From the NCBI RefSeq assembly GCF_900113715.1, contig NZ_FOQK01000008.1, positions 1 to 64,000 on the forward strand: a stretch of 64,000 nt of DNA. Direction: 5' to 3'. This DNA is from Pseudoselenomonas ruminantium. Lineage in GTDB: Bacteria; Bacillota; Negativicutes; Selenomonadales; Selenomonadaceae. Under the pieces are notes generated by a model, which made no database searches, was not told where the DNA came from, and saw nothing but the letters and a program-made list of their open reading frames with translations. Below are positions 3,577 through 17,033 of the stretch, piece by piece. A program made the position numbers and the translations under genes. Each line of letters opens with the position of its first letter. Within the stretch, counting starts at the first letter, position 1.

Positions 3577-5391
3577 TTGAAACATACCCAGGAGAAACGG
3601 CACTTCTATGAAGCCATCCGTGAGGCTGACCTCTGTACCATCCATGAGCTCCAGCAGCGTAGCAGCCGCTATATGGCGCTGCGCACAGGCACCTTCCTCA
3701 CGATGGTCTTCGCCTTTGCGGCCGGCTACGATGGCCATCCGGCAGGAACCGTCCTCGGCCTGCTGCTACTCATCTTTTTCCTGTTGCTCGTCCGCCAGCA
3801 CAACAGGCTGCGCCAGCAACAGCAGCTGCTTGCCTGCCATCTCGACGCGACTTCTTCCTATATCGATCGCTTCACTGGCAAATGGAAGGATTTTGATGAC
3901 AATGGGGCCAGCTTCCACCGCGCCGACCGGCCACAGGAAACCGACCTGCATATCTTCGGCCCTGCCTCCCTGTACCAGTACCTTTCCTGCGCCCGTACCC
4001 AGCGCGGCCGCCAGCGGCTGGCCCGGTCCCTTGCCACGTCACCGCCTGCTCCCGCAAAGATACTCGCCCGCCAGCAAGCCGTGGCAGAACTCATCGATCA
4101 CCCGCGTTTCTGCCTGAACCTCATGGCCCGCGCAGCCATGCTCGCCAATGGCCATGATACCACCAGCCTGCTGGCAGAGATTGAAAAAGAACCGCCCAGC
4201 GGCAGCCACTCGATCGTCCGCTACCGCACAGCCTGGATACTGCCAGTCCTCACGCTCATCAGCCTGCTGCTTGCGGCCTTCGATGTGGTGAGCTGGAGCC
4301 TCCCCGGCCTGCTGACCGGACTGCAATTCCTGCTCACGATGCTGTTCCACCGTCACAACCAGGAGGTGCTCGCCCCCCTCGCCGATCTCACCCATGAGCT
4401 GCACCACTACGAGGCGCTGTTCCGCGAGCTCGAGCAGGCAGATTTTGCCAGCACCACGCTGAGCGGTCTGCAGCAGCGCCTGCGCACGGGCGGCGCCAGC
4501 CAAAGCCTGCGCCGTCTGGCCCGGCTGGCCGACTGCGTCTCTTTGGACCACAACCTCTTTTTCTTCGTGCTTGCCAACACCCTGCTGCTCTGGGATTGCC
4601 ATATGGCCGTCCAGCTCAGCCGCTGGCGCGACGATGCTGCCAGCAACCTGCGCGAATGGATCGACATCTGGTCCGAAATGGAAACCTTGCTGTCACTGGC
4701 GACGATCGGCCACACGCGGACAACATGGGTATTCCCGCAGCTGGCAGCAGGCTCGCCGTCTCTGCGCGCCCGCAGCCTCAGCGCCTTGCTGCTCCCCGAG
4801 GAGAAAGCCATCCCGAACGATGCCAGGCTTGCCGCAGGCACGCATATCATCACGGGATCGAACATGAGCGGCAAAACCACCTATATGCGCACGCTTGCCA
4901 GTGCAGCCGTCCTCGCCTATGCCGGCGCACCGGTCTGTGCCGCAGAGTTCACGCTGTCGCCGCTGCATATCTTCACCTCCATCCAGGTCAACGATGACTT
5001 GTCCCAGGGCATATCGACCTTCTACGCCGAACTCCTGCGCATCAAGCAGATGGTCGAGTTCAGCCGCCAGGAGCAGCCCATGCTCATCTGCATCGATGAG
5101 ATCTTCAAAGGCACCAACTCCGCCGACCGCATCATCGGTGCGCAGGAAGCCATCCGCCATCTGACCCGCGCCTGGTGCATCACCCTTGTCACCACGCACG
5201 ACTTCGAGCTCTGTGACCTGAACTCCCCCAACGAGATACCTGTAACAAATTGTCACTTCGAAGAATACTACGAAGACGACAAGATACGGTTCGACTACAA
5301 GCTCAAGCCAGGGCGCTGCCAGACCACGAATGCCCAGTATCTGCTGCGCATGGCAGGGATCATCACCGATGAGCACGCAACAGGAAACTAA
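3577..5391 (+). CDS. Membrane-anchored MutS-family ATPase
   Basis: 604 residues; a TTG start is used, with AGGTGA a few bases before. Two hydrophobic hairpins are seen (about 36-75 and 212-250), then a helical clamp-like region and a MutS C-terminal ATPase domain. The ATPase has Walker A GSNMSGKTT (427-435), Walker B LICIDEIFKGTNS and the TTHDFEL switch. The mismatch-recognition domains I and II and the MutS2 Smr domain are missing, so it is neither MutS1 nor MutS2. It matches a poorly studied family of membrane MutS-like proteins of about 600 residues. A role in DNA transactions at the membrane is inference. Confidence 0.85.
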   Translation: MKHTQEKRHFYEAIREADLCTIHELQQRSSRYMALRTGTFLTMVFAFAAGYDGHPAGTVLGLLLLIFFLLLVRQHNRLRQQQQLLACHLDATSSYIDRFTGKWKDFDDNGASFHRADRPQETDLHIFGPASLYQYLSCARTQRGRQRLARSLATSPPAPAKILARQQAVAELIDHPRFCLNLMARAAMLANGHDTTSLLAEIEKEPPSGSHSIVRYRTAWILPVLTLISLLLAAFDVVSWSLPGLLTGLQFLLTMLFHRHNQEVLAPLADLTHELHHYEALFRELEQADFASTTLSGLQQRLRTGGASQSLRRLARLADCVSLDHNLFFFVLANTLLLWDCHMAVQLSRWRDDAASNLREWIDIWSEMETLLSLATIGHTRTTWVFPQLAAGSPSLRARSLSALLLPEEKAIPNDARLAAGTHIITGSNMSGKTTYMRTLASAAVLAYAGAPVCAAEFTLSPLHIFTSIQVNDDLSQGISTFYAELLRIKQMVEFSRQEQPMLICIDEIFKGTNSADRIIGAQEAIRHLTRAWCITLVTTHDFELCDLNSPNEIPVTNCHFEEYYEDDKIRFDYKLKPGRCQTTNAQYLLRMAGIITDEHATGN

Positions 5392-5576: not shown

Positions 5577-6947
5577 ATGGAATCATTCATCCCTGTACTC
5601 AATGCCATCGACTCCTTCATGTGGGGGCCGCCGCTGATCACGCTTCTGGTCGGCACGGGCATCTTCCTGACGATCCGCCTGCACCTGCTGCAGGTATTCC
5701 GCCTGCCGAAAGCGCTCGGCCTTATCTTCAAAGCCAAGAACCACGGCGAAGGTGATGTCTCGAGCTTCAAGGCACTCTGCGTCGCCCTCGCCGCTACGGT
5801 CGGCACGGGCAACATCGTCGGCGTCGCCACGGCTGTGAAGGTCGGCGGCCCGGGTGCCATCTTCTGGATGTGGATGGCCGCATTCTTCGGCATGGCAACG
5901 AAATACGCCGAAGGCCTGCTCGCCGTCAAGTATCGCAGCACCGATGAAAAAGGCGAGATTGCCGGCGGCCCGATGTTCTACATCCGCAACGGCATGGGCG
6001 AAAAGTATAAACCGCTCGCTACCTTCTTCGCCGTCGCAACGATCCTCGTCGCTTATCTCGGCATCGGTACCTTCCCGCAGGTCAACGCCATCGTCGACAG
6101 TGTCAATATCTCCTTTGGTGTGCCGAAATTCGCTACGGACATCGTCCTGACACTGCTGATTGCCGCTATCACCCTCGGCGGCCTGCAGAGCATCGCCAAA
6201 GTCGCCTCCAAGGTCATCCCGTTTATGGCCGTCATGTACATCGCCATCAGCCTTGGCCTTATCCTCATGCATCTCGATGCCGTCCCGGCTGCCGTTTCCC
6301 TGATTCTCGAGAGTGCCTTCACAGGCACGGCTGCTGCCGGTGGTTTTGCAGGCTCCACCATCATGATGGCCATGCAGAACGGTATCGCCCGCGGCGTCTT
6401 CTCCAATGAATCCGGTCTCGGCTCCGCCCCGATCGCCGCCGCTGCTGCCAAAACCAAGCATCCGGCTGAGCAGGGTCTCATCTCCATGACGGGTACCTTC
6501 ATCGACACGATCATCATCTGCACGATGACGGGCCTGGCCCTTGTCCTCACGGGTGTATGGCAGGGAGATGCTGCGGGTGCCGCTATGACCAGCGCCGCCT
6601 TTGCCAGCGTCTACGGCTTCCTCGGCAGCCAGCTCCTGACGATTGCTTTGGCCCTGTTTGCCTTCACGACGATCCTCGGCTGGAACTACTACGGCGAGCG
6701 CGCCTGCATCTACCTCATGGGTACCAAAGGCGTCCTGCCGTACCGTGTGATCTTCATCGCACTGATTGCCTCAGGTGCCTTCCTCAAGCTCGAAGCCATC
6801 TGGATCCTTGCCGATATCGTCAACGGCCTCATGGCTATCCCGAACCTTATCGCCCTTATCGCCCTCTCCGGTGTAGTCGTCGCTGAGACGAAGAGCTACC
6901 TCGCCGAAGAGGAAGCCTCCAAGAATGCCAAAGAGGCCTTGAACTGA
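5577..6947 (+). CDS. Sodium:alanine/glycine symporter (AGCS family)
   Basis: 456 residues with about ten hydrophobic helices. AGCS signatures are seen: GPPLITLLVGTGIFLTIR at the N-terminus, the ATVGTGNIVGVATA ligand/sodium loop, and the FSNESGLGSAPIAAAAA motif in the middle. The family imports alanine or glycine (some members glutamine) with Na+. The ATG at 5577 follows GAGGAGG by 8 bases, so the 19 in-frame codons upstream are not used. It is monocistronic, with strong terminators on both sides. No riboswitch fold was recognised in the roughly 120-base leader. Confidence 0.92.
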   Translation: MESFIPVLNAIDSFMWGPPLITLLVGTGIFLTIRLHLLQVFRLPKALGLIFKAKNHGEGDVSSFKALCVALAATVGTGNIVGVATAVKVGGPGAIFWMWMAAFFGMATKYAEGLLAVKYRSTDEKGEIAGGPMFYIRNGMGEKYKPLATFFAVATILVAYLGIGTFPQVNAIVDSVNISFGVPKFATDIVLTLLIAAITLGGLQSIAKVASKVIPFMAVMYIAISLGLILMHLDAVPAAVSLILESAFTGTAAAGGFAGSTIMMAMQNGIARGVFSNESGLGSAPIAAAAAKTKHPAEQGLISMTGTFIDTIIICTMTGLALVLTGVWQGDAAGAAMTSAAFASVYGFLGSQLLTIALALFAFTTILGWNYYGERACIYLMGTKGVLPYRVIFIALIASGAFLKLEAIWILADIVNGLMAIPNLIALIALSGVVVAETKSYLAEEEASKNAKEALN

Positions 6948-6965
6948 TACGCCAGCTTGCTAGGC

Positions 6966-7003
6966 AAAGCGACCTCCTGCCATTGGGCAGGAGGTCGCTT
7001 TAT
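6966..7003 (+). terminator. Terminator after the AGCS symporter gene
   Basis: AAAGCGACCTCCTGCC and GGCAGGAGGTCGCTTT make a 16-bp perfect stem with a 4-base loop. It is AT-rich on both sides and may work in both directions. Confidence 0.85.
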
Positions 7004-7076
7004 TTACATCTTTACAATTCCTTCACTTAGCCATACAATAGTAGGCATACACTTATTCTTAGAAAGAAGGCTTTTC

Positions 7077-7826
7077 ATGTCAGCCATACCATTGCCACTG
7101 GGCAAGACCCGCCGGGATGTGTTTTTCGAAGGCATCCATGACGGCATCCCGATTGCCCTGGGATATTTCGTCGTCTCCTTCACCCTTGGCATTGCCGCCA
7201 GGAACGCCGGCCTCACGCCCTTCCAGGGCTTTCTGGCCAGCTTCTTCAACAATGCCTCCGCCGGCGAATACGCCGCCTTCACGGTCATTGCCGCCGATGC
7301 CCCCTACCTCGAGATGGCCATCATCACCCTTGTGGCCAATGCGCGCTACATGCTCATGAGCTGTGTCGTCAGCCAGAAATTCGCAGCGGATACGCCACTT
7401 TGGCATCGCATTCTCGTCGGCTTCGACATCACGGACGAGATTTTCGGCATCACGATTGCCCGCAAAGGTCCGCTCAATCCCTACTATAATTATGGCGCTA
7501 TGGCCGTCGCCCTGCCTGGCTGGTCCATCGGTACCGCCCTCGGCGTCGTCGCCGGCAACCTGCTGCCACTGCAGGCCGTCAGTGCCCTGTCTGTCGCCCT
7601 GTTCGGCATGTTCCTCTGGGTCATCATCCCGACGGCCCGCGACAACCACATCGTCGGCGGCCTCGTACTCGCCAGTTTCATTGCCAGCTTTGCTCTGGCA
7701 CATCTGCCCGGTCTTATGGAGCTGTCCGCCGGCACGCGCACGATTATCCTGACCGTTGTCATCGCAGGGCTTGGCGCCGCGTTCTTCCCCATAAAAGACA
7801 AGGAGGACAACGACCATGCAGCATGA
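7077..7826 (+). CDS. azlC: AzlC-family branched-chain amino-acid exporter, large subunit
   Basis: 249 residues with several transmembrane segments. The N-terminus (GIHDGIPIALGYFVVSFTLG) and the NARYMLMSC segment are typical of AzlC/YgaZ. With AzlD it exports branched-chain amino acids (azaleucine in Bacillus) across the inner membrane. The ATG at 7077 follows AAGAAGG by 7 bases. Its end overlaps azlD by 11 bases, showing translational coupling. Confidence 0.92.
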   Translation: MSAIPLPLGKTRRDVFFEGIHDGIPIALGYFVVSFTLGIAARNAGLTPFQGFLASFFNNASAGEYAAFTVIAADAPYLEMAIITLVANARYMLMSCVVSQKFAADTPLWHRILVGFDITDEIFGITIARKGPLNPYYNYGAMAVALPGWSIGTALGVVAGNLLPLQAVSALSVALFGMFLWVIIPTARDNHIVGGLVLASFIASFALAHLPGLMELSAGTRTIILTVVIAGLGAAFFPIKDKEDNDHAA

Positions 7827-8124
7827 CATCTATGTCTATCTATTCATCATGAGCGCCGTGACTATCGCCATCCGCATCGTCCCGCTGACGCTCATCCGCA
7901 AGCAGATCAAGAACCGTTTTCTGCGTTCCTTCCTGTTCTACGTCCCCTATGTAACGCTCGCCGTCATGACCTTCCCGGCCATCATGAACGCTACGCAGAC
8001 ACCAATCTCCGGCCTTATGGCCCTTATAGCCGGCATCGCGCTTTCCTGGTACGGTGCCAGCCTGTTCAAAGTATCAGCCGCCTGCTGTATCGTCGTGTTC
8101 TGCACCGAACTCATACTCATCTAA
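7816..8124 (+). CDS. azlD: AzlD-family branched-chain amino-acid exporter, small subunit
   Basis: 102 residues, three or four hydrophobic helices, normal length for AzlD/YgaH. The RIVPLTLIRK segment near the N-terminus and the FLFYVPYVTLAVMTFPAI segment are characteristic. It overlaps azlC by 11 bases, with AAGGAGG inside azlC as its ribosome site. Its last 18 bases and the stop codon lie in a 25-bp sequence repeated at 13756-13780, which marks the edge of the island that follows. Confidence 0.92.
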   Translation: MQHDIYVYLFIMSAVTIAIRIVPLTLIRKQIKNRFLRSFLFYVPYVTLAVMTFPAIMNATQTPISGLMALIAGIALSWYGASLFKVSAACCIVVFCTELILI

Positions 8125-8131
8125 GCAGGAA
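8107..8131. repeat. Left 25-bp direct repeat flanking the island (attachment-like)
   Basis: The 25 bases from GAACTCATACTC to TAAGCAGGAA are identical to 13756-13780. This copy contains the azlD stop codon; the other contains the stop codon of the crp-like gene read on the opposite strand. The neighbouring bases differ at both ends. Before insertion azlD and crp probably overlapped tail to tail. Confidence 0.85.
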
Positions 8132-8151
8132 TTATATAATACTCCAAAAAC

Positions 8152-8198
8152 AAGCGGAGGCTTGACTTGTCAAATTTGACTTGTCAGCCCCCGCTTTT
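8152..8198 (+). terminator. Hairpin after azlD, at the left end of the island
   Basis: AAGCGGAGGC and GCCCCCGCTT pair (one mismatch) and are followed by TTTTC. The loop contains the 11-mer TTGACTTGTCA twice (8162-8172 and 8176-8186). It can terminate azlCD transcripts, although it lies inside the repeat-bounded island. Confidence 0.6.
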
Positions 8199-8359
8199 CT
8201 GTGTTCTACTAGTCAATCAATATAGGAATTGTATGTATCTCCATATTTGTAGTGATACAGGCAACGTATAATGGACAGGGCCAGCGCTGAACTGCGCGCC
8301 TTAGTGCTTGGCGGGGCCAGTCGCGGGTCTGTTCTGCAATAAGCCCAGCAAAAACCTCA

Positions 8360-8419
8360 TCAAAGCAAAAAGCCCATTCCCAACAACAAGATTAAGAGAT
8401 TTTTCTTCACCAGTCTCAT
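8360..8419 (-). other. Possible 19-codon peptide or broken signal-peptide gene
   Basis: A short frame MRLVKKNLLILLLGMGFLL is preceded by GGGGAGG. GTG at 8410 may be the real start, giving better spacing. It reads like a signal peptide cut off by a stop; another frame continues as LFALMRFLLGLLQNRP. The rest of 8125-8433 holds only the azlD hairpin and no recognisable gene. It may be a decayed exported-protein gene. Confidence 0.25.
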
Positions 8420-8433
8420 CCTCCCCTAATTGG

Positions 8434-9135
8434 TCAATTTTCCATTCTTATGCCAAACCACTGAGCGGCACTATCCCAAAACAGAACGGCTGAGTTTATA
8501 GTGCAATAATTCCCATCCACTTTGACCGGCACACCGTTGTATTTACTGCTTAATGGACGGGGCGGAGCCTGCGGGTCAGCCCCCCAATAAACTTTTGCCG
8601 TCCCAGTAAGCCAAAGCTCACCATTCTTAATGGTCGGGGATATGTCATCAAACAGCAAACCTGCATTTTCTACTGTGTCCAATGTAGCATAAGTAAGCAA
8701 TTTCCCATCTTTCTCGCCCACAAGCCACATCCCCATACAAGCAGAACTGCCATCAGCAGCATCCTGATAAGTTCGAATCAATAAAAACTCTCGCTTATCT
8801 GTCGAAGGCATTATCTGCACCTTGGCTGATTCATCTTTTTTCACCGGAAAAGACAGCATCTCTCTGCCGCAGCTAACTGTTATCGTTCCACCGGCATTTT
8901 TTCTGATGCCATAGTCGTGATAATATTTTACCCGTATCTTTACATTGACTTCCTTGCCATTGAAGTTACTTAACTTGGCCCAATGTTCTCCATTATCCGG
9001 GCCACTGCAATCTTCTGCTATCCCATTGTGATTGGAAAAGCCTAACAAAGGACAAATAGCGCGCAACGACATGGCATCCGCACTGCCTATGTGAACAAAC
9101 AGCGACAAACATAGCAGGAATAACAGTTTACGCAT
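8434..9135 (-). CDS. Exported hypothetical protein (island)
   Basis: 233 residues with a signal peptide (RKLLFLLCLSLFVHIGSADA, cleavage about residue 21). The mature part contains cysteines near CPLLGF, CSGP, SCGRE, ACMG and NYCTI that could pair after export. I see no known enzymatic motif. It begins 15 bases downstream of the neighbouring 165-residue gene and is probably in one transcript with it. Family and function are unknown. Confidence 0.6.
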   Translation of the reverse strand: MRKLLFLLCLSLFVHIGSADAMSLRAICPLLGFSNHNGIAEDCSGPDNGEHWAKLSNFNGKEVNVKIRVKYYHDYGIRKNAGGTITVSCGREMLSFPVKKDESAKVQIMPSTDKREFLLIRTYQDAADGSSACMGMWLVGEKDGKLLTYATLDTVENAGLLFDDISPTIKNGELWLTGTAKVYWGADPQAPPRPLSSKYNGVPVKVDGNYCTINSAVLFWDSAAQWFGIRMEN

Positions 9136-9150
9136 TACTTATGCCTCCCA

Positions 9151-9648
9151 TCAAATCCCCAATGCCTGATACAAACTCTCGGGAATAACTCTCTGCCACG
9201 AACCGTAAGTATATCCTAGTTTATTTCCATAGAACTTCATATTATAAGCACTTACAAAAGCCACCTCTGCTAAATTAGGCACAAAGGGCGCACCCGTTGC
9301 AAAACTATAGGTACAATTCAAATCCCATTTCAACCATGTATCTTTTTGTTGTGAATAATAGTAAACCGTCTTGGTATCCCAGTTATAGCGGAAATAATGG
9401 ATCTCCACATCCCCACGCTGACCCGTATCCACATTCACCGTTATACTATTTATAGCAATCTGATACTTTGGCGGCTGATAAAGCTGCACATCTACTGAGG
9501 AACGAATAGCATATATTCCATAGCCCATATGACCAGCAACAAATACTAAATTCCCATTATCCAATGTCCGTGGATAAGGATTAGCCGCAAAGGCACTTTG
9601 ACATGTCAATAAAAGAAATGCTAACAAAGTTAATACAATCTTTTTCAT
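9151..9648 (-). CDS. Exported hypothetical protein (island)
   Basis: 165 residues with a signal peptide (MKKIVLTLLAFLLLTCQSAFA, cleavage after AFA). The mature part is rich in Tyr, Asn and Val (QLYQPPKYQIAINSITVNVD, EIHYFRYNWDTKTVYYYS), suggesting an all-beta exported domain. The ATG at 9648 follows GAGGAG by about 10 bases; an in-frame TTG at 9657 overlaps that site and is rejected. The family resembles small secreted proteins common in Selenomonadaceae, an impression rather than a proven match. Confidence 0.65.
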   Translation of the reverse strand: MKKIVLTLLAFLLLTCQSAFAANPYPRTLDNGNLVFVAGHMGYGIYAIRSSVDVQLYQPPKYQIAINSITVNVDTGQRGDVEIHYFRYNWDTKTVYYYSQQKDTWLKWDLNCTYSFATGAPFVPNLAEVAFVSAYNMKFYGNKLGYTYGSWQRVIPESLYQALGI

Positions 9649-9720
9649 TATCTTCAACTCCTCTCACATTGCCCGCAAAATTATATCCCGATTAATCCTT
9701 GCCGCTTCCAGTATAGCCGC

Positions 9721-9923
9721 TTAATGGGCCATAATCCGCGCATGGCCTGGATTCTTCGCCTTGTCCGGGGCAGCCCCTCCATAGTCCATGCCGTTGATAG
9801 TCTCCTTGTCCCATTCCATCATATCACTGCTCGCTGCCAACGTCTGCGCCATATTGCTACTTAACCAAAAGCCGACAGCTGTCAAGAGACAAATTGGTCT
9901 ACTTATTATTTTATCATTCTCAT
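9721..9923 (-). pseudogene. Small exported protein gene with a one-base frameshift
   Basis: A GGGAGG ribosome site leads to ATG at 9923, which reads MRMIK and then stops. In the next frame a typical signal peptide and mature region continue (IISRPICLLTAVGFWLSSNM, then AQTLAASSDMMEWDKETING and GGAAPDKAKNPGHARIMAH). Adding one A to the AAAA run (plus-strand TTTT, 9909-9912) would join them into a normal protein of about 67 residues. It may be a real mutation, slippage or a sequencing error. Confidence 0.5.
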
Positions 9924-9941
9924 CTACATTTACCTCCCAAT

Positions 9942-10799
9942 TTAAGCACTCCAACCTACGTAAATCGCCGTAACCACACCATTTGCTACCGAAAAAACAA
10001 AATCACAATCCCCACGTCCCTTATAGTGATATGAGCCATTTACAGCAAAAGGCGGTTTACCGTATTTTGTTATAACCTCTGAAGCAGGACTGCCAACTTT
10101 AATTCCGTCCGGAGTCGCTAAACCATTTGCAGCTGTACATTTTATTAGATATGGGTACTCTGTCGAATCTCCCACAAATAGCATTATAAAAGAATCTCCA
10201 TACTCCCAACGCTCTACCATTGCCTCCCATGACTTTGACCATGACCTTGATATTTTAGTCGGTTCACCGTAAATACTCCTGATATATGCTTGCGATGAGC
10301 CAAACGGAGATATACCACCAATCGCAATCTGGTCATCACGAAGTAAATTGTGTTGTTTTGAAGAACTGGATTTACTCCCCGATGAACTCTTCCCATTCGC
10401 TCGGTCAAAAATCACCTTCGCCGCACGACTAGTGTCACTGCCTTTAATGTACTGATAGCTGCCTCCCGGCGCATGGTACACACCATTTTGGAAGAACACA
10501 AAATTAAAGTTCGTTCCTCCCTTGGAATTCTCTGAATCGCTAGTTATCATGTATACTCGGCCATATACCGCAGCCCGTCCATCATAACTTCCCGATTCAC
10601 AAGAATTCAAATCCAACATATACCACATAGAAATCGGCCCCATAGGTTGAGTATCAATCAGCATATAATCATGGTTATCCGAAGCATAGTAGCCCCCCTG
10701 CCCATCCGTGGACAGACCTAACGCCTGCACCATATTCGCACTTCCCAAAAGCATCATAGTACATAGCCATATTGTACCCAAAAATTTTCGCCATAACAT
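9942..10799 (-). CDS. Exported protein with two repeated domains (island)
   Basis: 285 residues with a signal peptide (WRKFLGTIWLCTMMLLGS..., cleavage near VQA, about 26). After a Tyr/Gly-rich first half and a Ser/Lys linker (about 140-150), two similar units follow: SPFGSSQAYIRSIYGEPTK with WEYGDSFIMLF, and DGIKVGSPASEVITKYGKPP with CDFVFSVANGVVTAIYVG. This 'YGEP/YGKP' repeat resembles SmpA-like or DUF4309-like exported domains of Firmicutes. The function is unknown. The ribosome site is GAGGAAG 9 bases before the ATG. Confidence 0.65.
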   Translation of the reverse strand: MLWRKFLGTIWLCTMMLLGSANMVQALGLSTDGQGGYYASDNHDYMLIDTQPMGPISMWYMLDLNSCESGSYDGRAAVYGRVYMITSDSENSKGGTNFNFVFFQNGVYHAPGGSYQYIKGSDTSRAAKVIFDRANGKSSSGSKSSSSKQHNLLRDDQIAIGGISPFGSSQAYIRSIYGEPTKISRSWSKSWEAMVERWEYGDSFIMLFVGDSTEYPYLIKCTAANGLATPDGIKVGSPASEVITKYGKPPFAVNGSYHYKGRGDCDFVFSVANGVVTAIYVGWSA

Positions 10800-10873
10800 C
10801 CTTCTTCACTTCCTCTAAGCCATCGTAATCATATTAATTTTTTATTCAAAACTTGACTTTTTGGGACATTATA

Positions 10874-11860
10874 TCACTTATAACAATCCTTTAATTTTAG
10901 ATAATCAATTTTAATCCCTGCATCTTCCAAGCTCTTTTTTCGTTCTTCATATAATTTTCTCAGCACAGGTTCTTTTTCTTCCATAGTTCCATGATGCAAT
11001 ATGGCATGGCAATTACTACATAGAGATACAATATTATTGGTAACATCAAGTGAAATCACATTATTTTCGTTATCTCTAAATTCACCAGTATTACTCATTG
11101 GCACTAAATGATGTGCTTCTGTATAGCCTTTTCCATTCTTCCTTTGAAATATTTTATGATTATTATCCACTTCACATTTATAATTTGCGTAAATCAATGC
11201 TTCAGCCGCATTCACCAGATTACGTCTAGGATATTTTTTATTATAGACATATGCTGCTTTTTGTGGCTCTTTTTTGAAGTGTTCCCTATTAGGCATTTTA
11301 CTCATCGTATCAATAGCTTTTTCAATTTCTTCTTTTTCATCATTAGTATAATCTTGATCAAAATAGTATAAAATCTTCCATAAGTAAAGATTCTCGTTAC
11401 CAAAACTTCTGATTTGTTCAGTCAAATATATTATCTCTTTTGGATTCATCTTTAACGCATAAGCCATTTTCTTAACTGCTTTTTCACCATATGTAATCAA
11501 TTCTGAATTCTTTATATTCATTTTGACCCATTCGATAAATTTCTGATGGTCTACATGTGTACTTAATTCCTCAACATGAACTCTAGTCAAATATCCCTCG
11601 TCCATTCCGTCTCCATAAACCACTCTATCTTCAGGTGGCATTTCAGATAAATTGTAATATTTGCCATCTTCAACAACACAACTTATCGCAACTATTTTTT
11701 TCTTATGAAGATGGTATATGAAATCTCCTTTTTTCATTCTTTTAACATTCTCAGCTGGTGGCCAACGCTTACCATCTCTTGTTAACTGCCTTGTCCACAA
11801 ATATTGTTTTGTTATTTCTTGTTCGTACGTTTCATCCTGAGATACATAGTAAACCTCCAT
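10874..11860 (-). CDS. HNH endonuclease with an EVE/PUA-like N-terminal domain
   Basis: 328 residues, AT-rich coding. The N-terminal 120 residues (MEVYYVSQDET..., MKKGDFIYHLHKKKIVAISC) look like an EVE/PUA-type domain, a fold that often reads modified bases. The C-terminus carries an HNH nuclease: a cysteine in YKCEVDN, the core EAHHLVPM, and NIVSLCSNCHAILHHG with the zinc CxxC and terminal histidines. This architecture fits a modification-dependent (type IV-like) restriction enzyme. GGAGG 7 bases before the ATG at 11860 decides the start; the ten codons upstream are excluded. It probably forms a pair with the GIY-YIG gene just upstream. Confidence 0.75.
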   Translation of the reverse strand: MEVYYVSQDETYEQEITKQYLWTRQLTRDGKRWPPAENVKRMKKGDFIYHLHKKKIVAISCVVEDGKYYNLSEMPPEDRVVYGDGMDEGYLTRVHVEELSTHVDHQKFIEWVKMNIKNSELITYGEKAVKKMAYALKMNPKEIIYLTEQIRSFGNENLYLWKILYYFDQDYTNDEKEEIEKAIDTMSKMPNREHFKKEPQKAAYVYNKKYPRRNLVNAAEALIYANYKCEVDNNHKIFQRKNGKGYTEAHHLVPMSNTGEFRDNENNVISLDVTNNIVSLCSNCHAILHHGTMEEKEPVLRKLYEERKKSLEDAGIKIDYLKLKDCYK

Positions 11861-11956
11861 TTTATGCCTCCATTTCATAATATAAAACAAAACTTATCTT
11901 TATAAAATAATATTTGCGTTTGTTTATTCCATTTTTATCTAATAATTATAATTTCA

Positions 11957-12685
11957 TTAACGATCTTTCTTATTATTTTCTATCTTCCCATCAATAACAT
12001 AAATAACCGGATGTTGTAACTTAGTAGTTTCCGGCAAATATTTATTTACATATCTTTCACGAATTTCATCTGAGGCAATGGCTCCTACAAATTCGTAACG
12101 CTCATCCTCAACATAAGCCCATTCATCTACTTTATATACTTCCAAAATTATATTATTGTACAGCGGCATTACATATTTACAGTTCCGTTTTGCTTTTTCA
12201 CTCCTAATTTCCCAACTACTCCGTGCAATTTCATATAGTTCATTTTCATCTATTCCTGCTTTATACTTTTGTGTAATTTTCACAAATATAGCATCCTCCT
12301 TAAAGTCTTTAGCATAAATAGGCGTTGCGCCATATTCGCGTTCCAATTCATCCGCAAACCTACGTCCCCACTTACCAGCATGATTTCCTCTTATCTCATT
12401 CGTAAGTTTATCTAATCCTATAAGGTCAATCGCTGACATTTCAACAATTTTGGCCGTTTCATCATCCATTCCATATGCTAATATTTCAATCACGGGTTCT
12501 TTCCCTTGTTTCTTTAATTCATCTAATTTTGCAACTTTAGAATTATTTCCATTCTGTTTAAAATGGTCAAATACGCGATTCCCTGTCCCTTTCCCGATAT
12601 AGAAAATGTTCCCTTCCGTATCTGACAAAACATAAACATAGTTTTTCAGTTCTTCCTGGGTCTTTAATGAAAATTCACGAATCAT
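11957..12685 (-). CDS. GIY-YIG nuclease domain protein (LEM-3-like)
   Basis: 242 residues, AT-rich. Residues 15-110 form a GIY-YIG domain: YVYVL (the GIY element), FYIGKGTGNRVFDH (the YIG element with the catalytic Arg), and a conserved Glu in KIVEMSAIDLIG. The subtype looks like the LEM-3-like group. The C-terminal 130 residues (SSWEIRSEKAKR..., VYKVDEWAYVED) are unassigned but resemble small beta-barrel modules attached to such nucleases. GGAGG lies 8 bases before the ATG. It is followed 96 bases later by the HNH nuclease gene, suggesting a two-nuclease defence cassette. Confidence 0.75.
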   Translation of the reverse strand: MIREFSLKTQEELKNYVYVLSDTEGNIFYIGKGTGNRVFDHFKQNGNNSKVAKLDELKKQGKEPVIEILAYGMDDETAKIVEMSAIDLIGLDKLTNEIRGNHAGKWGRRFADELEREYGATPIYAKDFKEDAIFVKITQKYKAGIDENELYEIARSSWEIRSEKAKRNCKYVMPLYNNIILEVYKVDEWAYVEDERYEFVGAIASDEIRERYVNKYLPETTKLQHPVIYVIDGKIENNKKDR

Positions 12686-12841
12686 AACGCTAACCTCCGA
12701 TACAGTTTACAAATCATATCATCATACATTACCTGTATTTTTCCATCTTCTCATGCTTACAAAGCATCTTTCCAACACCCTACGAAAACTATCATTAATC
12801 GCTCCATCCCCCTTCTATCCGCTTTTTTGCATACCGCAATT

Positions 12842-12992
12842 TGGCAGAAAAACCATGGTTTTTTTGCGGCATAATTTTTCTTTTTCTTTGCAGGAAAATT
12901 ATTATATATTGTCGAAACATTACGATAATATATATGGGGTCGTGAAATCAAAGATTCTTTAGATGGCAGTTAAACCATGGTTTTCTTGCCGC
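12842..12992. promoter_or_regulatory. Candidate resolvase recombination (res-like) site
   Basis: Two similar dyads centred on AAACCATGGTTT, each starting GGCAG and ending TTGCnGC, lie at 12842-12869 and 12963-12990. Between them is a third inverted repeat (ATATATTGTCG, 8-base spacer, CGATAATATAT, about 12905-12934). Three dyads beside a serine resolvase gene match the general layout of Tn3/gamma-delta res sites. It lies just downstream of the resolvase stop. No protein gene was found in 12686-13019; two overlapping short frames there are discarded. Confidence 0.5.
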
Positions 12993-13019
12993 CTCTTTCA
13001 TTTTAGGGCTTTATCGTGC

Positions 13020-13616
13020 TTACTCATGCGCCCATTTATGGAAGGTGGGGCGGGACACGCCCAGCTTTTCTGCAGCTTCCCGCTCGGAAATCTGCCCGTT
13101 TGCCCATGCCTCCCGCACCATCGCAAAAGCCGCAGGTTTCTTCACTGGCCGTCTGCCCAGCCGGACACCGCGCAGCCTTGCCGCGGCCAGCCCTTCCATG
13201 GTTCGCTGGTGATTCATATTGCGCTCAGTTTCAGCCACATAGGAAAATACTTGAATGACCAGATTGGAGATAAGTTTTGCCGTCAGGTCATCCCCATATT
13301 TGTTTCGCGTATCAAGCAGCGGAAGGTCGATAACCACAATGGCTGCTTCTTTCTCCTTGGTGATGATATCCAGCTGTTGGGTCATCTCGTCGTAGTTACG
13401 CCCCAGCCTGTCCAAACTCTTCACCACCAAGGTGTCACCAGGTTTGAGCTGTTCCATCATCTCGATATAGGCAGGGCGTTCGAAGTTTTTCCCGCTTTGC
13501 CTATCTACAAAGACGCACTCCTTCGGAATGCCGAAATCTTCCATTGCCAGCCACTGGCGATCATCGCGCTGGGAAATAGTGGATACTCGGATGTAGCCAT
13601 AAATCTTGTTGTTCAT
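13020..13616 (-). CDS. Serine recombinase of the resolvase/invertase family
   Basis: 198 residues, the usual length for TnpR/Hin-type enzymes. The catalytic Ser12 lies in GYIRVST. The family Arg residues are in SLDRLGRNY, and the E-helix ends in ETERNMNHQRTMEGLAAAR. A C-terminal helix-turn-helix (ISEREAAEKLGVSRPTFHKW) binds the site. It catalyses DNA cleavage and rejoining via a 5'-phosphoserine link. A strong GAGAGGAGG precedes the ATG and TATAAT lies about 25 bases upstream. Its GC content is higher than the nuclease genes downstream, so the island may be composite. Confidence 0.9.
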   Translation of the reverse strand: MNNKIYGYIRVSTISQRDDRQWLAMEDFGIPKECVFVDRQSGKNFERPAYIEMMEQLKPGDTLVVKSLDRLGRNYDEMTQQLDIITKEKEAAIVVIDLPLLDTRNKYGDDLTAKLISNLVIQVFSYVAETERNMNHQRTMEGLAAARLRGVRLGRRPVKKPAAFAMVREAWANGQISEREAAEKLGVSRPTFHKWAHE

Positions 13617-13695
13617 TTGGATTCCTCCTCTCCAATTATAAAAAACAAATTTACTTTGATTTTAGAGGGAATGCTTCCGTTTTTTGGACAATAAC

Positions 13696-13748
13696 GATAC
13701 ACCTAAAAGCCCATCGGTGTTTCTTACCGATGGGCTTTTAGGTGTATC
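13696..13748 (-). terminator. Perfect 23-bp inverted repeat, terminator of the crp-like gene
   Basis: Arms GATACACCTAAAAGCCCATC...(13696-13718) and the complement (13726-13748) are perfect over 23 bp with a 7-base loop. The inner part, AAAAGCCCATCGGT/ACCGATGGGCTTTT, is a bidirectional terminator. Its outer edge is 7 bases from the right direct repeat, so it also marks the island end. Confidence 0.8.
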
Positions 13749-13755
13749 TATAAAG

Positions 13756-13780
13756 GAACTCATACTCATCTAAGCAGGAA
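13756..13780. repeat. Right 25-bp direct repeat flanking the island (attachment-like)
   Basis: Identical to 8107-8131 over 25 bp. On the minus strand it supplies the last codons (FLLR) and stop of the crp-like gene. Confidence 0.85.
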
Positions 13781-14446
13781 GTATCTCTTCCCCTCAATGC
13801 GCAGCAGGCCTTCATCCTGCATGGCACCGAGCTCGCGAGACAGGGCACTGCGGTTGACGCCAAGGAATTCTGCCATAGCTGTCGTCGTCAGGTTGACAGC
13901 TACCGCGCCATCTGTCTGGCGCGGCATCTCGCCTAGGAATATCCCGATGCGGTCGCGCAGTTTCTTCTGGCTCAAGATCCGCACCTTGCGGTTTTGATAG
14001 ACGTTCTGCTGGGCCAGGCCACGAATCAAATTCAGTGCGAGCTGATACGGTATTACCGTACTTTCGCCTTGCGGCTGCTGCAGGATAGAAAGGTCAACGA
14101 AGATGACCAGACTGTCTGCCAAAGCCTCAAGTTGTATCGGGCTGTGCGCCGGCTGCACGCAGCCCAGAGCCTCACCGAAGAATTCCCCGGCGCCAAAGCG
14201 GCTGACCGCGATCTTCGCATCATTTTCATTGAGGAAGGCTCCTTCGATACGCCCCATCACCACGATTCCCGCATAACGGAACGGCTCATCCAGTCGTTGG
14301 AATATCTCATGCTTACCCAGACGCTGCCATCTTCCCTTCAGGAAATGCAACGTCTTTTCGTATTCTGCCGCAGGTATCCCCGCCAGCAGGGGACAGCTCG
14401 CCAAAACCTGCTCATACTTCCTGCATAGATTTTCTTTCCCCATCAT
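13766..14446 (-). CDS. Crp/Fnr-family transcriptional regulator
   Basis: 226 residues with an N-terminal cyclic-nucleotide-type beta-roll (about 30-120: FGAGEFFGEALG), a long dimer helix and a C-terminal winged helix (TTTAMAEFLGVNRSALSREL, about 180-205). The cysteine cluster of FNR is absent, so the signal is unknown; haem- or nitrosative-stress-sensing relatives (DNR, HcpR) are possible. GGAGG 8 bases before the ATG at 14446 sets the start. It diverges from a hemerythrin gene whose promoter carries a matching palindrome. The final codons lie in the right repeat of the island. Confidence 0.88.
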   Translation of the reverse strand: MMGKENLCRKYEQVLASCPLLAGIPAAEYEKTLHFLKGRWQRLGKHEIFQRLDEPFRYAGIVVMGRIEGAFLNENDAKIAVSRFGAGEFFGEALGCVQPAHSPIQLEALADSLVIFVDLSILQQPQGESTVIPYQLALNLIRGLAQQNVYQNRKVRILSQKKLRDRIGIFLGEMPRQTDGAVAVNLTTTAMAEFLGVNRSALSRELGAMQDEGLLRIEGKRYFLLR

Positions 14447-14521
14447 ACGCACAGCCTCCGTTTCCTATTTTGGTTTTATTCTAGCATACACCAGCAGTCT
14501 GGCATATCCAGAAAATCACAA

Positions 14522-14566
14522 TCTGTTGCCATGACAACAGACCCGTCAGCCGCCAGCCGCTACAAT
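14522..14566 (+). promoter_or_regulatory. Crp/Fnr-type operator and promoter of the hemerythrin gene
   Basis: TCTGTTGCCATGACAACAGA (14522-14541) is a dyad with 7-bp perfect arms and a 6-base centre. A -10 element TACAAT lies at 14561-14566, giving a start near 14573. The dyad centre is then at about -41.5, the class II activator position for Crp/Fnr proteins. No good -35 box is present, as expected for an activated promoter. Confidence 0.65.
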
Positions 14567-14602
14567 AAGACCAGAAAAACGACAAACCAAGGAGGCTATC
14601 TC

Positions 14603-15013
14603 ATGTATCTTGAAATCTTGAAAGACCACCATGCCAGCATCTATGAATACATCCGCACCATCAACAGCTGCCATTCCGACCTGCAAGTCGGGCAGCAGGC
14701 CGATGACATCGCCAAAGCCTTGGCACGGCTGGCAGGGCTTATCTCCATCCATCTTGCCGCTGAGGATAAATTCCTTTACCCCAGCCTCAGCCAGAGTCCC
14801 GACGACACCATCCGGCAGATGGCTGTACGCTTTGAGCAGGATATGGGCGGACTGGCCGCAACCTTCACGGCCTATAAGGAAGCATTCATGACGCCGTCAA
14901 AGATCAAGGCCGATATCCCCAAATTCCGCCAGGAAACCCAGCGGGTCATCGGCGCCTTGCTGGAACGGCTGCAGCGCGAAGACAAAGAGCTCTACCCCCT
15001 CGTCGCGGAATGA
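14603..15013 (+). CDS. Hemerythrin-domain protein
   Basis: 136 residues forming a four-helix bundle. Helix A has KDHHASIYEYI, helix B has HLAAEDKFLYPSL (His50, Glu54), and helix D reads ERLQREDKELYPLV. This is the subtype without the later histidines of classical hemerythrin, so diiron binding may use other ligands. AAGGAGG lies 7 bases before the ATG at 14603. Related proteins sense or handle O2, NO or iron. The divergent Crp/Fnr gene and the operator suggest induction by low oxygen or nitrosative stress, which is inference. Confidence 0.82.
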   Translation: MYLEILKDHHASIYEYIRTINSCHSDLQVGQQADDIAKALARLAGLISIHLAAEDKFLYPSLSQSPDDTIRQMAVRFEQDMGGLAATFTAYKEAFMTPSKIKADIPKFRQETQRVIGALLERLQREDKELYPLVAE

Positions 15014-15026
15014 CAGCAGGAACGAA

Positions 15027-15065
15027 AACCGGCCCCGCCTTATGTACCATAAGGCGGGGCCGGTT
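15027..15065 (+). terminator. Terminator after the hemerythrin gene
   Basis: AACCGGCCCCGCCTTATG and its complement form a 17-18-bp GC-rich stem with a very short loop, followed by TTCTGTCT. The T-tract is weak but the stem is strong. Confidence 0.65.
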
Positions 15066-15100
15066 CTGTCTGCCATTGCTATCCTCAGAAATGACAATCT

Positions 15101-15388
15101 TTATGCGATTTGGTAGACGCGTGCATCACAATACGTCTTCCAGTAACGTACAGCATCAACATAAGACAGTACATAGCGATTTTCCACATCGCTGCGCGTG
15201 AGTTTTATATCGTAGCAGCACTTGGCAAATGCGATAGGCTCACGATGGGCGGCTTCGCGGATGATTTCCTGCAGCGTATCCTCGACAAACGCCGTCCGCG
15301 ATTTCCAGGCTGCTTTCTCCTTGAGATTATATCGTCCCGTCTTGAATTTAAATAACTTATTTGTTGTGTTGTTGACTGCCACAACCAT
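15101..15388 (-). CDS. Conserved hypothetical protein, 95 residues
   Basis: Starts MVVAVNNTTNKLFKFKTGRY. GGAGGAG lies 6 bases before the ATG at 15388. It is soluble and basic, with two adjacent cysteines (AKCCYDIKLTRSDVENRYVL) and a Tyr/Trp-rich C-terminus (VDAVRYWKTYCDARVYQ). I do not recognise it. The AT-rich stretch 15389-15533 contains its promoter region and no other gene. Confidence 0.6.
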   Translation of the reverse strand: MVVAVNNTTNKLFKFKTGRYNLKEKAAWKSRTAFVEDTLQEIIREAAHREPIAFAKCCYDIKLTRSDVENRYVLSYVDAVRYWKTYCDARVYQIA

Positions 15389-15533
15389 TTACTTCTCCTC
15401 CTACGCAACAGTTATATAAACAATCTTTATATTGCTTTTTATTTACATAAATATTTATAGCGTTATTTTACCCCATAAGTCCTAAAGGGTAAATGTATTA
15501 TAGCACAATTTTTCTACCATTGGTAGTGAATTA

Positions 15534-17033
15534 TTACAATTTACCTTTATTAGGAAAAAATGTTGCCAGCACTTTTTCATCCTGCGGTTTGCCAATATAA
15601 GCACCGAGCAGGAAGAACAGCAGCGAAACCGTAATACCGATGGTTATCTGATGCAGTCCTAGGACTTTGAATCCCATGCCCTGCGTCAAGCAATAAGCCA
15701 GCGTGCCGCCCCCCATCGACAGGATGGCACCAAGCTTGTTGGCCCGCCGCCAAAACAGTCCGAGCAGCAGCGTCCAGAAGAACGCCGTCTCCAAACCGCC
15801 AAAAGCAAACATGTTGATGATCCAGATAAGGCTAGGCGGCGTCAACGCAATGCAGAACACCACAACACCAATCACCGCCGTAGCCGCCATCGACAGTAGC
15901 CGAAGCTTGCCTGCGGACGGCTGGATGCCCCGCTTGGCCTTATGATGCAGATAAACATCCTTGATGATGGCCGAAGATGCGACAATCAGCAGCCCCGAAA
16001 TCGTCGAAATCGAAGCAGCCAACGGGCCGATGATGGCCAGGCCAACCAATGCTGGTGGCATTGCCGTGACAATCGTCTTCGGTATGATATAGTCAACACC
16101 GCCATAGCTCTGCAGGCTATCGGTCAGTACACCATGGGCAAGGATACCCGTGAAGTTAATACCGATATTCATGAAACCGACAACCACCGTACCGATAAGC
16201 ATTGCCCGATGCAAACTCTTCGTATCCTTGTAGCTGATGCCACGCACGACTGACTGAGGCAGGGCAATCGTACAGATACCGACGAGTATCCACTGCGTAA
16301 GATACAGGCCCACAGGCATATGCCCCGCTGACAACGGCTCCAGCATCTCCGGATGGTTGGCATGGATATTGGCCATGATATTGCTATAACCGCCACCTGC
16401 CTGCAAGACATAGTAGAGCAACAACACGATGCCAATCATCATCATGACTGCACAGCAAGTATCTGTTAGTGCCACCGCACGGAAACCGCCGATACTCGTA
16501 TAGATGACAACGACTAGGCCAAAAAGCAACAGCCCCATCTCATAACTGTAGCCCGTGACCGTTGCAAACAACTTCGCACCACCGACAAACTGTGCCGTCA
16601 TTGTCGCACAGAAGAACAGCACGATAATAAAAGCCGCCAGGCTCGCAAGACCATCCGACTGGAAACGCTCACGGATAATATCGACAACCGTCACCGCATC
16701 GAACTTGCGCGACAGCAGGGCCACGCGTTTGCCAAAAATTCCCAGCACCAGGAAAATCGCCGTGACCTGCACAACCGCCATATAAATCCAGCCAAAACCG
16801 ATCTGCCAGGCCATGCCGGGACCGCCGACAAACGAACTTACCGAGCTGTAAGTCGCCACGGTCGTCATCGCAAGAACGAAGCCGCCAAGATCGTGGCTGC
16901 CAATGAAATACTGCTGCACAAAATTATGGGCAAAGCCACGGGCTTGCACGCGGCGCACATAGAAGCCGATGCCGACCATCACAGCCATGAAGACCAGCAA
17001 GGGCAGCAGTGCTGCCGGATTGCCGTTATTCAT
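15534..17033 (-). CDS. panF: Sodium/pantothenate symporter
   Basis: 499 residues, about 13 transmembrane helices, of the sodium:solute symporter family. Characteristic stretches are FIGSHDLGGFVLAMTTVATY near the N-terminus, the YTSIGGFRAVALTD motif and AIIGPLAASISTISGLL. It imports pantothenate with Na+ for coenzyme A synthesis. The ATG at 17033 is chosen because GGGG is 10 bases upstream and it overlaps the end of the yhdT-like gene by 8 bases; the yhdT-panF pair is conserved in many bacteria. Confidence 0.92.
   Translation of the reverse strand: MNNGNPAALLPLLVFMAVMVGIGFYVRRVQARGFAHNFVQQYFIGSHDLGGFVLAMTTVATYSSVSSFVGGPGMAWQIGFGWIYMAVVQVTAIFLVLGIFGKRVALLSRKFDAVTVVDIIRERFQSDGLASLAAFIIVLFFCATMTAQFVGGAKLFATVTGYSYEMGLLLFGLVVVIYTSIGGFRAVALTDTCCAVMMMIGIVLLLYYVLQAGGGYSNIMANIHANHPEMLEPLSAGHMPVGLYLTQWILVGICTIALPQSVVRGISYKDTKSLHRAMLIGTVVVGFMNIGINFTGILAHGVLTDSLQSYGGVDYIIPKTIVTAMPPALVGLAIIGPLAASISTISGLLIVASSAIIKDVYLHHKAKRGIQPSAGKLRLLSMAATAVIGVVVFCIALTPPSLIWIINMFAFGGLETAFFWTLLLGLFWRRANKLGAILSMGGGTLAYCLTQGMGFKVLGLHQITIGITVSLLFFLLGAYIGKPQDEKVLATFFPNKGKL

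What the first reader, a model, noticed from the sequence alone, without database searches (positions are those of the whole stretch)
8107..13780. Resolvase/nuclease island inserted between azlD and crp with a 25-bp target repeat
Seen: 25 bp are identical at 8107-8131 and 13756-13780, each forming the 3' end of a convergent host gene; the DNA between is AT-rich. Known: duplication of a gene's 3' end is typical of site-specific integration. Inferred: azlD and crp once overlapped tail to tail and a 5.6-kb element separated them, rebuilding both ends. The element carries only a small resolvase, which does not normally make a 25-bp duplication, so the integration mechanism is open and may be new.
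Basis: partly seen in the sequence, partly recalled or inferred. Interest (0 to 1): 0.8.

Follow-up and report, generated by a model that had tools for sequence, protein, structure and literature searches.

The report
Phase-switched restriction island in Selenomonas
A 5.6-kb foreign block sits between two genes of a rumen-type Selenomonas; its 'resolvase' most likely flips a tiny neighbouring promoter to switch on or off two enzymes that probably cut the modified DNA of phages, while how the block itself got in remains unsolved.

Summary
The 25-mer at 8107-8131 and 13756-13780 is the only exact direct repeat of 18 nt or more in the window, and one congener (G015) has the empty site with a single copy. 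azlD and crp thus once overlapped tail to tail and 5,649 bp (one repeat copy included) were inserted. The integration mechanism stays open: no integrase was recognised in the block.

The 'resolvase' is probably not the mobiliser. It is a small serine recombinase followed, here and at related loci, by two ~26-bp dyads around AACCATGGTT, 122 bp apart. The segment between them occurs in both orientations among relatives, and a related switch in the same genome breaks exactly at the dyad centre. It is a DNA-inversion switch. The segment carries a conserved sigma-H-like promoter; distant clostridial relatives often carry sigma-A promoters there. Downstream lie a homologue of the type IV restriction enzyme CMoRE/PD-T4-3, an EVE-HNH (VcaM4I-like) nuclease and three secreted-type proteins. 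As assembled, the promoter points away from them (probably OFF). Four of 18 other switches tested precede defence genes (Hma, HKD-Snf2 twice, IetA-like). Inversion is supported by comparison only; nothing was tested at the bench.

The parts
7816..8124 (+). azlD, host gene whose 3' end forms the left repeat
   Evidence: Pfam AzlD 4.5e-10
8107..8131 (+). left copy of the 25-bp repeat
8150..8199 (.). hairpin at the left end of the block; its core 8162-8186 is a repeat dispersed in the genus
8434..9135 (-). secreted-type protein, 233 aa (signal-like start judged by eye)
   Evidence: no Pfam, NCBIfam or PADLOC family; 65% identical homologue in the G010 island
9151..9657 (-). secreted-type protein, 168 aa
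   Evidence: homologues in L057 (56%) and L048 (43%)
9721..9954 (-). probable remnant of a gene that is 312 codons long in the G010 island
   Evidence: DNA match 9707-10817 reaches into that G010 gene; resemblance of the proteins judged by eye
9942..10799 (-). secreted-type protein, 285 aa
   Evidence: PHROG of unknown function 1.9e-17; 54% identical homologue in L048
10874..11860 (-). EVE-HNH type nuclease, 328 aa
   Evidence: HNH_2 0.00016; PADLOC mREase_IV 1.7e-6; PDB McrA 0.00017 and VcaM4I 0.034; Foldseek VcaM4I 1.4e-8 on a low-confidence model
11957..12685 (-). GIY-YIG nuclease, homologue of CMoRE/PD-T4-3, 242 aa
   Evidence: PADLOC PD-T4-3 8.2e-29; PDB 9u7u 2.9e-18
12843..12868 (.). dyad next to the operon (recombination site)
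12869..12964 (.). invertible segment, 96 bp
   Evidence: inverted relative to L043 and, in a related switch, L047 against L042
12890..12917 (+). sigma-H-like promoter GCAGGAAAA-N12-GTCGAAA, pointing away from the operon
   Evidence: consensus in PMC8510167
12965..12990 (.). dyad next to the recombinase gene (recombination site)
13020..13616 (-). small serine recombinase (DNA invertase), 198 aa
   Evidence: Pfam Resolvase 1.8e-28; PHROG DNA invertase 5.8e-48; PDB Sin, gamma-delta resolvase, DNA-invertase
13696..13748 (.). perfect 23-bp hairpin, terminator-like, at the right end of the block
13756..13780 (+). right copy of the 25-bp repeat
13766..14452 (-). crp-family regulator, host gene whose 3' end forms the right repeat
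   Evidence: Pfam HTH_Crp_2 and cNMP_binding

Best explanation
The block is a horizontally acquired cassette whose expression is set by DNA inversion. The serine recombinase made by its first gene acts on the two dyads just downstream of that gene, exchanges strands at the centre of AACC-AT-GGTT and flips the 96-bp segment between them. The segment carries one promoter, of sigma-H type. In one orientation it drives the operon GIY-YIG, EVE-HNH and the secreted-type proteins; in the other, as assembled here, it points back at the recombinase gene and the operon is probably silent. When expressed, the two nucleases would cut incoming DNA with modified cytosines, as the characterised CMoRE and VcaM4I do, and switching would let part of the population carry this defence while sparing the rest its cost. 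Shown by comparison: insertion and inversion. Inferred: that this recombinase does the flipping, sigma-H dependence, which state is ON, and the restriction function. Not explained: how the block was integrated.
For: Dyads beside the recombinase gene, 2 found in the window and 0 in shuffles, at the same places next to homologues in several genera. Inverted arms of at least 19/24 matches just downstream of the gene in 17 of 35 Selenomonad records and 17 of 61 others, against 0 of 30 and 0 of 56 control stretches. Window switch aligns to that of L043 better inverted (126/154, score 168) than colinear (score 89); L047 of the same genome against L042 is colinear to CCAT at the dyad centre (57/59) and inverted beyond (110/123). 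Sigma-H-like motif in 14 of 19 segments in one orientation, 0 of 19 in the other; sigma-H orthologue in the genome, 373 bits against a cut-off of 295. In 10 of 17 distant loci the segment holds a sigma-A promoter of at least 10/12, 0.65 expected. Nuclease homologies. Other switches precede Hma, HKD-Snf2 and IetA-like defence genes.
Against: No reads, so both orientations were never seen in one population. Most Selenomonad segments are too diverged to be oriented by alignment to the window. The sigma-H pattern was chosen after seeing related segments, most have GAAA rather than the consensus GAAT, and 5 of 19 miss the strict pattern. A weak sigma-A-like promoter on the other strand is not excluded, which would reverse ON and OFF. 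14 of 18 other loci tested show no PADLOC hit in the 1-2 cargo proteins tried. VcaM4I similarity is weak by sequence (0.034) and the model has pLDDT 55.8. Upstream stretches of 6 loci also reach the 19/24 arm threshold.
Confidence: 0.72

Rival explanations
1. Integration by a tyrosine integrase acting in trans or since lost: a circular form carrying the 25-29-bp sequence (attP) recombined with the overlapping azlD/crp ends (attB), giving attL and attR. The block would ride on the cell's or another element's recombinase.
For: Single-copy empty site, identical repeats at gene 3' ends with both ends kept; similarity resumes for 3 nt after the mismatch (28/29), as hybrid att sites may show.
Against: No integrase family among the block's proteins tested; the 25-mer is in none of 187 other family genomes and its 20-base core not in IMG/VR.
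Confidence: 0.4
2. Integration by short-homology (RecA or illegitimate) recombination of taken-up DNA that already carried a copy of the azlD/crp junction, for instance from another strain.
For: The 25-39-bp repeats at two islands differ in kind; at L060 the repeat belongs to a duplicated host-gene end, and at G015:C31 there is no long repeat, so integration is not uniform.
Against: A chance 25-bp match between block and target is very unlikely; it must come from the same locus, which only moves the origin elsewhere.
Confidence: 0.3
3. The repeat is a true target-site duplication: a staggered break of 25 nt at the azlD/crp junction was filled in around captured DNA, or an unknown transposition did so.
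For: Both copies identical over 25 nt.
Against: No transposase in the block; 25 nt is longer than the usual duplications of insertion sequences (recalled); no other insertion with such a duplication was found in the scan of 107 records.
Confidence: 0.2
4. The small recombinase itself integrated the block.
For: It is the only recombinase in the block.
Against: Its likely sites are the internal dyads; the 25-mer does not resemble them; homologues sit at many places with the same adjacent dyads; G015:C31 lacks a repeat.
Confidence: 0.03
5. The dyads are resolution sites or terminator-like hairpins and do not invert.
For: The recombinase belongs to the Tn3/Tn552 resolvase-invertase family and the dyads are nearly palindromic, so they can also be read as direct repeats.
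Against: The segment is found inverted with a breakpoint at the dyad centre; promoters lie between the arms in distant families.
Confidence: 0.07

Closest known systems
Invertible promoters (invertons) with adjacent serine invertase; Hin/Gin and Mpi families (names recalled; inverton survey PMC11892184 seen in passages)
   Same: serine recombinase, paired inverted sites, short promoter segment found in both orientations
   Different: sigma-H-like promoter, type IV restriction cargo, dyads of AACCATGGTT type placed right after the recombinase gene in an inserted island; that survey's passages link invertons to hsdS shuffling, not to type IV enzymes
CMoRE (PD-T4-3), GIY-YIG type IV restriction enzyme (PMC12923530, abstract and two passages)
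   Same: homology across nuclease and part of the sensing domain
   Different: 242 aa against 262; only moderate similarity; here paired with an EVE-HNH gene behind an invertible promoter
VcaM4I, EVE-HNH endonuclease (PMC7897488, abstract and outline)
   Same: N-terminal EVE-like domain and C-terminal HNH
   Different: weak sequence similarity; modification specificity unknown
Phase-variable type I restriction by hsdS inversion (PMC11892184 passages)
   Same: restriction under site-specific inversion
   Different: there coding sequence is shuffled to change specificity; here a promoter would be flipped, an on/off control

Membership tests
DNA inversion switch with dedicated serine recombinase | serine recombinase gene adjacent to the sites | tested here: met
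   Ser12 invariant in 13 aligned homologues
DNA inversion switch with dedicated serine recombinase | paired recombination sites flanking a promoter segment | tested here: met
   sigma-H-like motif
DNA inversion switch with dedicated serine recombinase | segment found in both orientations | tested here: met
   between genomes only:
DNA inversion switch with dedicated serine recombinase | inversion within one population, catalysed by this enzyme | not testable with these tools
   needs reads or an assay
Sigma-H regulon promoter | RNAGGAWWW and RNNGAAT elements at 11-12 nt spacing | tested here: met
   window 12 of 13 defined positions by the score used; -10 has GAAA in place of GAAT
Sigma-H regulon promoter | transcription depends on sigma-H | not testable with these tools
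   sigma-H orthologue present
CMoRE/PD-T4-3 | GIY-YIG domain and matching sensing domain | tested here: met
   residues 2-198 of 242, E 2.9e-18; PADLOC 8.2e-29
CMoRE/PD-T4-3 | cleavage of 5hmC or 5ghmC DNA | not testable with these tools
   biochemistry needed
EVE-HNH endonuclease | N-terminal EVE domain fused to HNH | tested here: inconclusive
   best PDB fold match VcaM4I 1.4e-8 on a model with pLDDT 55.8; sequence 0.034; HNH part clear
Integrative element of tyrosine-integrase type | att-like repeats at a gene 3' end and a single-copy empty site | tested here: met
Integrative element of tyrosine-integrase type | integrase gene in the element | tested here: not met
   no integrase family for the block's proteins; so not filed as a member

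The most novel reading that the evidence does not exclude
Selenomonadaceae carry a recurring, swappable cassette type in which a dedicated invertase flips a sigma-H promoter to switch defence and secreted-protein operons, so that restriction of modified DNA is both phase-variable and tied to the sigma-H state (stationary phase or competence). The cassette moves without its own integrase, and at azlD/crp it left 25-bp attachment repeats at gene ends.
Probability: 0.3. Interest if true: 0.75.

Novelty: new variant of a known kind. Interest (0 to 1): 0.58.

Why it matters
If true, type IV restriction and other defence systems (Hma, HKD-Snf2, IetA-like) in some rumen and gut Selenomonads are bet-hedged by promoter inversion and coupled to sigma-H, which long reads can test directly. 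The dyad-plus-recombinase signature gives a way to find such switched operons in Negativicutes and Clostridia, where the segment holds sigma-H-like promoters in the former and often sigma-A promoters in the latter. The 25-bp repeat without an integrase remains a small, clear open problem with a known empty site.

Tried and rejected
Resolvase as integrase: rejected (rival 4). Phage or plasmid origin: the exact 20-base core of the 25-mer is not in IMG/VR, the block has no blastn match in PLSDB or INPHARED, and no IMG/VR relative of the HNH protein was found with a single-sequence query; relatives of the recombinase do occur there, 68 loci, and were not examined further. tRNA target: no tRNA in the window. 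Repeats at other invertase islands: a scan of 27 oriented loci (window included) and 80 named records found repeats of 15 nt or more in four: the window, L060 (paralogous gene end) and two 15-mers (L104, L131) of uncertain meaning; downstream flanks were limited to what was fetched. Sigma-70 promoter in 12600-13780: none found, 2.3 expected. Orphan dyads acting in trans: of 22 genus genomes 6 have matches; the own genome has only its two sites; G007 has a lone 3-mismatch match that was printed but not analysed. Literature: no paper describing such a switch over type IV restriction or in Selenomonas in the listings; these cover open-licence PMC text only and four term sets. One search found nothing. 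PMC5641562 was seen in passages and was of no use.
Full report
The repeat and the insertion. The two 25-mers at 8107-8131 and 13756-13780 are identical, are the only exact direct repeat of 18 nt or more in the window and exceed every shuffle of the flanks (longest 13 nt), and occur nowhere else in the assembly within 3 mismatches. Of 22 genus genomes only the own genome and G015 have this crp-family gene at E <= 1e-20. In G015 azlD and crp meet over a single copy: its sequence matches window 6620-8135 and 13756-15946, the two matches overlapping by 29 nt. Joining 800 nt of each flank at the repeat gives 1464 identities in 1596 columns. So 5,649 bp were inserted, counting one repeat copy. Only these two of 189 family genomes hold the 25-mer.

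Organism. Contigs of G009, G010 and G014, which are of the window's genus, coincide in length with contigs of MAGs named Selenomonas ruminantium; the window's genus is Selenomonas in that sense. Its species was not determined.

The recombinase and its switch. The 198-aa protein at 13020-13616 is a small serine recombinase related to Sin, gamma-delta resolvase and a DNA invertase of known structure; its NCBIfam matches are all below the curated cut-offs. At E <= 1e-40 relatives occur in 69 of 189 family genomes, the own included. Directly downstream lie two dyads, 12843-12868 and 12965-12990, 122 bp apart, both with AACCATGGTT at the centre (2 found, 0 in shuffles). That the core resembles hix sites is recalled, not tested. 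Homologues in other genera have dyads at the same places, with AACCATGGTT or diverged cores. A search for inverted arms found at least 19/24 matches near the end of the recombinase gene in 17 of 35 Selenomonad records and 17 of 61 others, against 0 of 30 and 0 of 56 control stretches further downstream; stretches upstream of the gene reached this in 6 loci (L039, L067, L111, L121, L129, L145), some of which may be switches on the other side.

The segment inverts. The switch region of the window aligns to that of L043 (G014:C5) with 126/154 identities when one is inverted (score 168) and with score 89 in the colinear frame; inside the segment alone the scores were 102 against 34. L053 also fits inverted (53 against 16) and L057 colinear (95 against 39), their largest shuffle scores being 25 and 30; L061 fits inverted only weakly (31 against 16, largest shuffle 34); most other segments could not be oriented this way. 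In the same genome, at C6 (L047), a related switch compared with that of G012 (L042) is colinear over 57/59 up to CCAT at the dyad centre and inverted over 110/123 from there on, which places the crossover at the core. I assigned 4 of 19 segments as pointing to the cargo (L043, L053, L061, L047) and 15, the window among them, as pointing away; apart from the alignments just given this rests on the marker AATCCTTGATTT and the promoter motif, read by eye.

The promoter. In one common orientation most segments share GCAGGAAWW-N11/12-GNCGAAW. PMC8510167 (one passage) gives the sigma-H consensus as RNAGGAWWW and RNNGAATWW. A strict form occurs in 14 of 19 segments in that orientation and in 0 of 19 in the other, with 0.04 expected in shuffles; the same pattern occurs 3 times in the 64-kb window on both strands together. 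I chose the pattern after seeing the segments, and they are related, so these numbers are descriptive. The genome encodes a sigma-H orthologue above the curated cut-off (373 against 295 bits). In 17 more distant loci (Oscillospiraceae and other Clostridia) the segment instead holds a sigma-A promoter scoring at least 10/12 in 10 loci (0.65 expected), at least 11 in 6 and 12 in 3, each pointing back toward the recombinase gene; the strand of the cargo was not checked there. In the window the promoter (12890-12917) lies on the + strand, away from the operon on the - strand.

The cargo. The GIY-YIG protein hits the PADLOC PD-T4-3 model (8.2e-29) and the CMoRE structures (2.9e-18); PMC12923530 (abstract and two passages) states that PD-T4-3 is a type IV enzyme for 5hmC/5ghmC DNA and renames it CMoRE. 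The HNH protein matches a PADLOC type IV model (1.7e-6), McrA in its HNH part (0.00017) and VcaM4I weakly in its N-terminus (0.034); a low-confidence model (pLDDT 55.8) has VcaM4I as best PDB match (1.4e-8), followed at 1.3e-3 by human THYN1 bound to 5mC DNA. PMC7897488 (abstract and outline) describes VcaM4I as a 5mC/5hmC-sensing EVE-HNH enzyme. The three secreted-type proteins have no Pfam, NCBIfam or PADLOC family; two match PHROGs of unknown function; their signal-like starts were judged by eye. The G010:C56 island has the same switch, then TPR proteins, then a truncated EVE gene and homologues of the same secreted-type proteins. PD-T4-3 homologues occur in 2 other of 189 family genomes, G164 and G165; both are followed by genes that resemble these secreted-type proteins, a BLAST match being seen for G165 only.

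Other switches. PADLOC was run on 1-2 cargo proteins of each of 18 other loci: 4 had hits, namely HmaA and HmaB in L055 (1602 and 1051 bits), HKD+Snf2 in L051 and L054, and an IetA-like AAA protein in L053; the other 14 had none. Defence is therefore one cargo class, not the rule.

How the block entered. No integrase family was found among its proteins. One other invertase island (G015:C31) interrupts a terminator-like sequence without a long repeat; another (G025, L060) is bounded by a 39-bp repeat that belongs to a duplicated host-gene end and is single in G026 and G027. The islands thus do not share one integration signature, which argues against the recombinase being the integrase. I cannot decide between a trans-acting integrase, short-homology recombination and break repair.

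Noticed in passing
window 8162-8186: TTGACTTGTCAAATTTGACTTGTCA, part of a hairpin at the block's left end, is a dispersed repeat: 19 of 22 genus genomes have matches to this end, at least 13 in the own genome and 24 in G004. Function unknown; terminator or uptake sequence are guesses.
   Followed up: partly
L049 6651-9299 (G015:C31): An invertase island with a stop codon in the recombinase gene and a PDDEXK_2 (Rpn-like) gene, absent from the matching place in the own genome (G000:C5), with related inverted sequences at 7712-7769 and 9217-9299.
   Followed up: partly
L047 (G000:C6:35065-35652): A second, related invertase and switch in the own genome, in the opposite orientation to relatives, with recombinant half-sites.
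   Followed up: yes
L218 (G000:C45:800-1366): A second sigma-H-like sigma factor (131 bits, below the curated cut-off) besides the orthologue at G000:C20.
   Followed up: no
L060 (G025:C30), repeats at 1583-1621 and 4731-4769: An invertase island bounded by a 39-bp repeat that is part of a duplicated host-gene 3' end; single copy in G026 and G027.
   Followed up: partly
L055 (G023:C39): An Hma-type defence system (HmaA 1602 bits, HmaB 1051 bits) starts directly downstream of an invertible-promoter segment.
   Followed up: no
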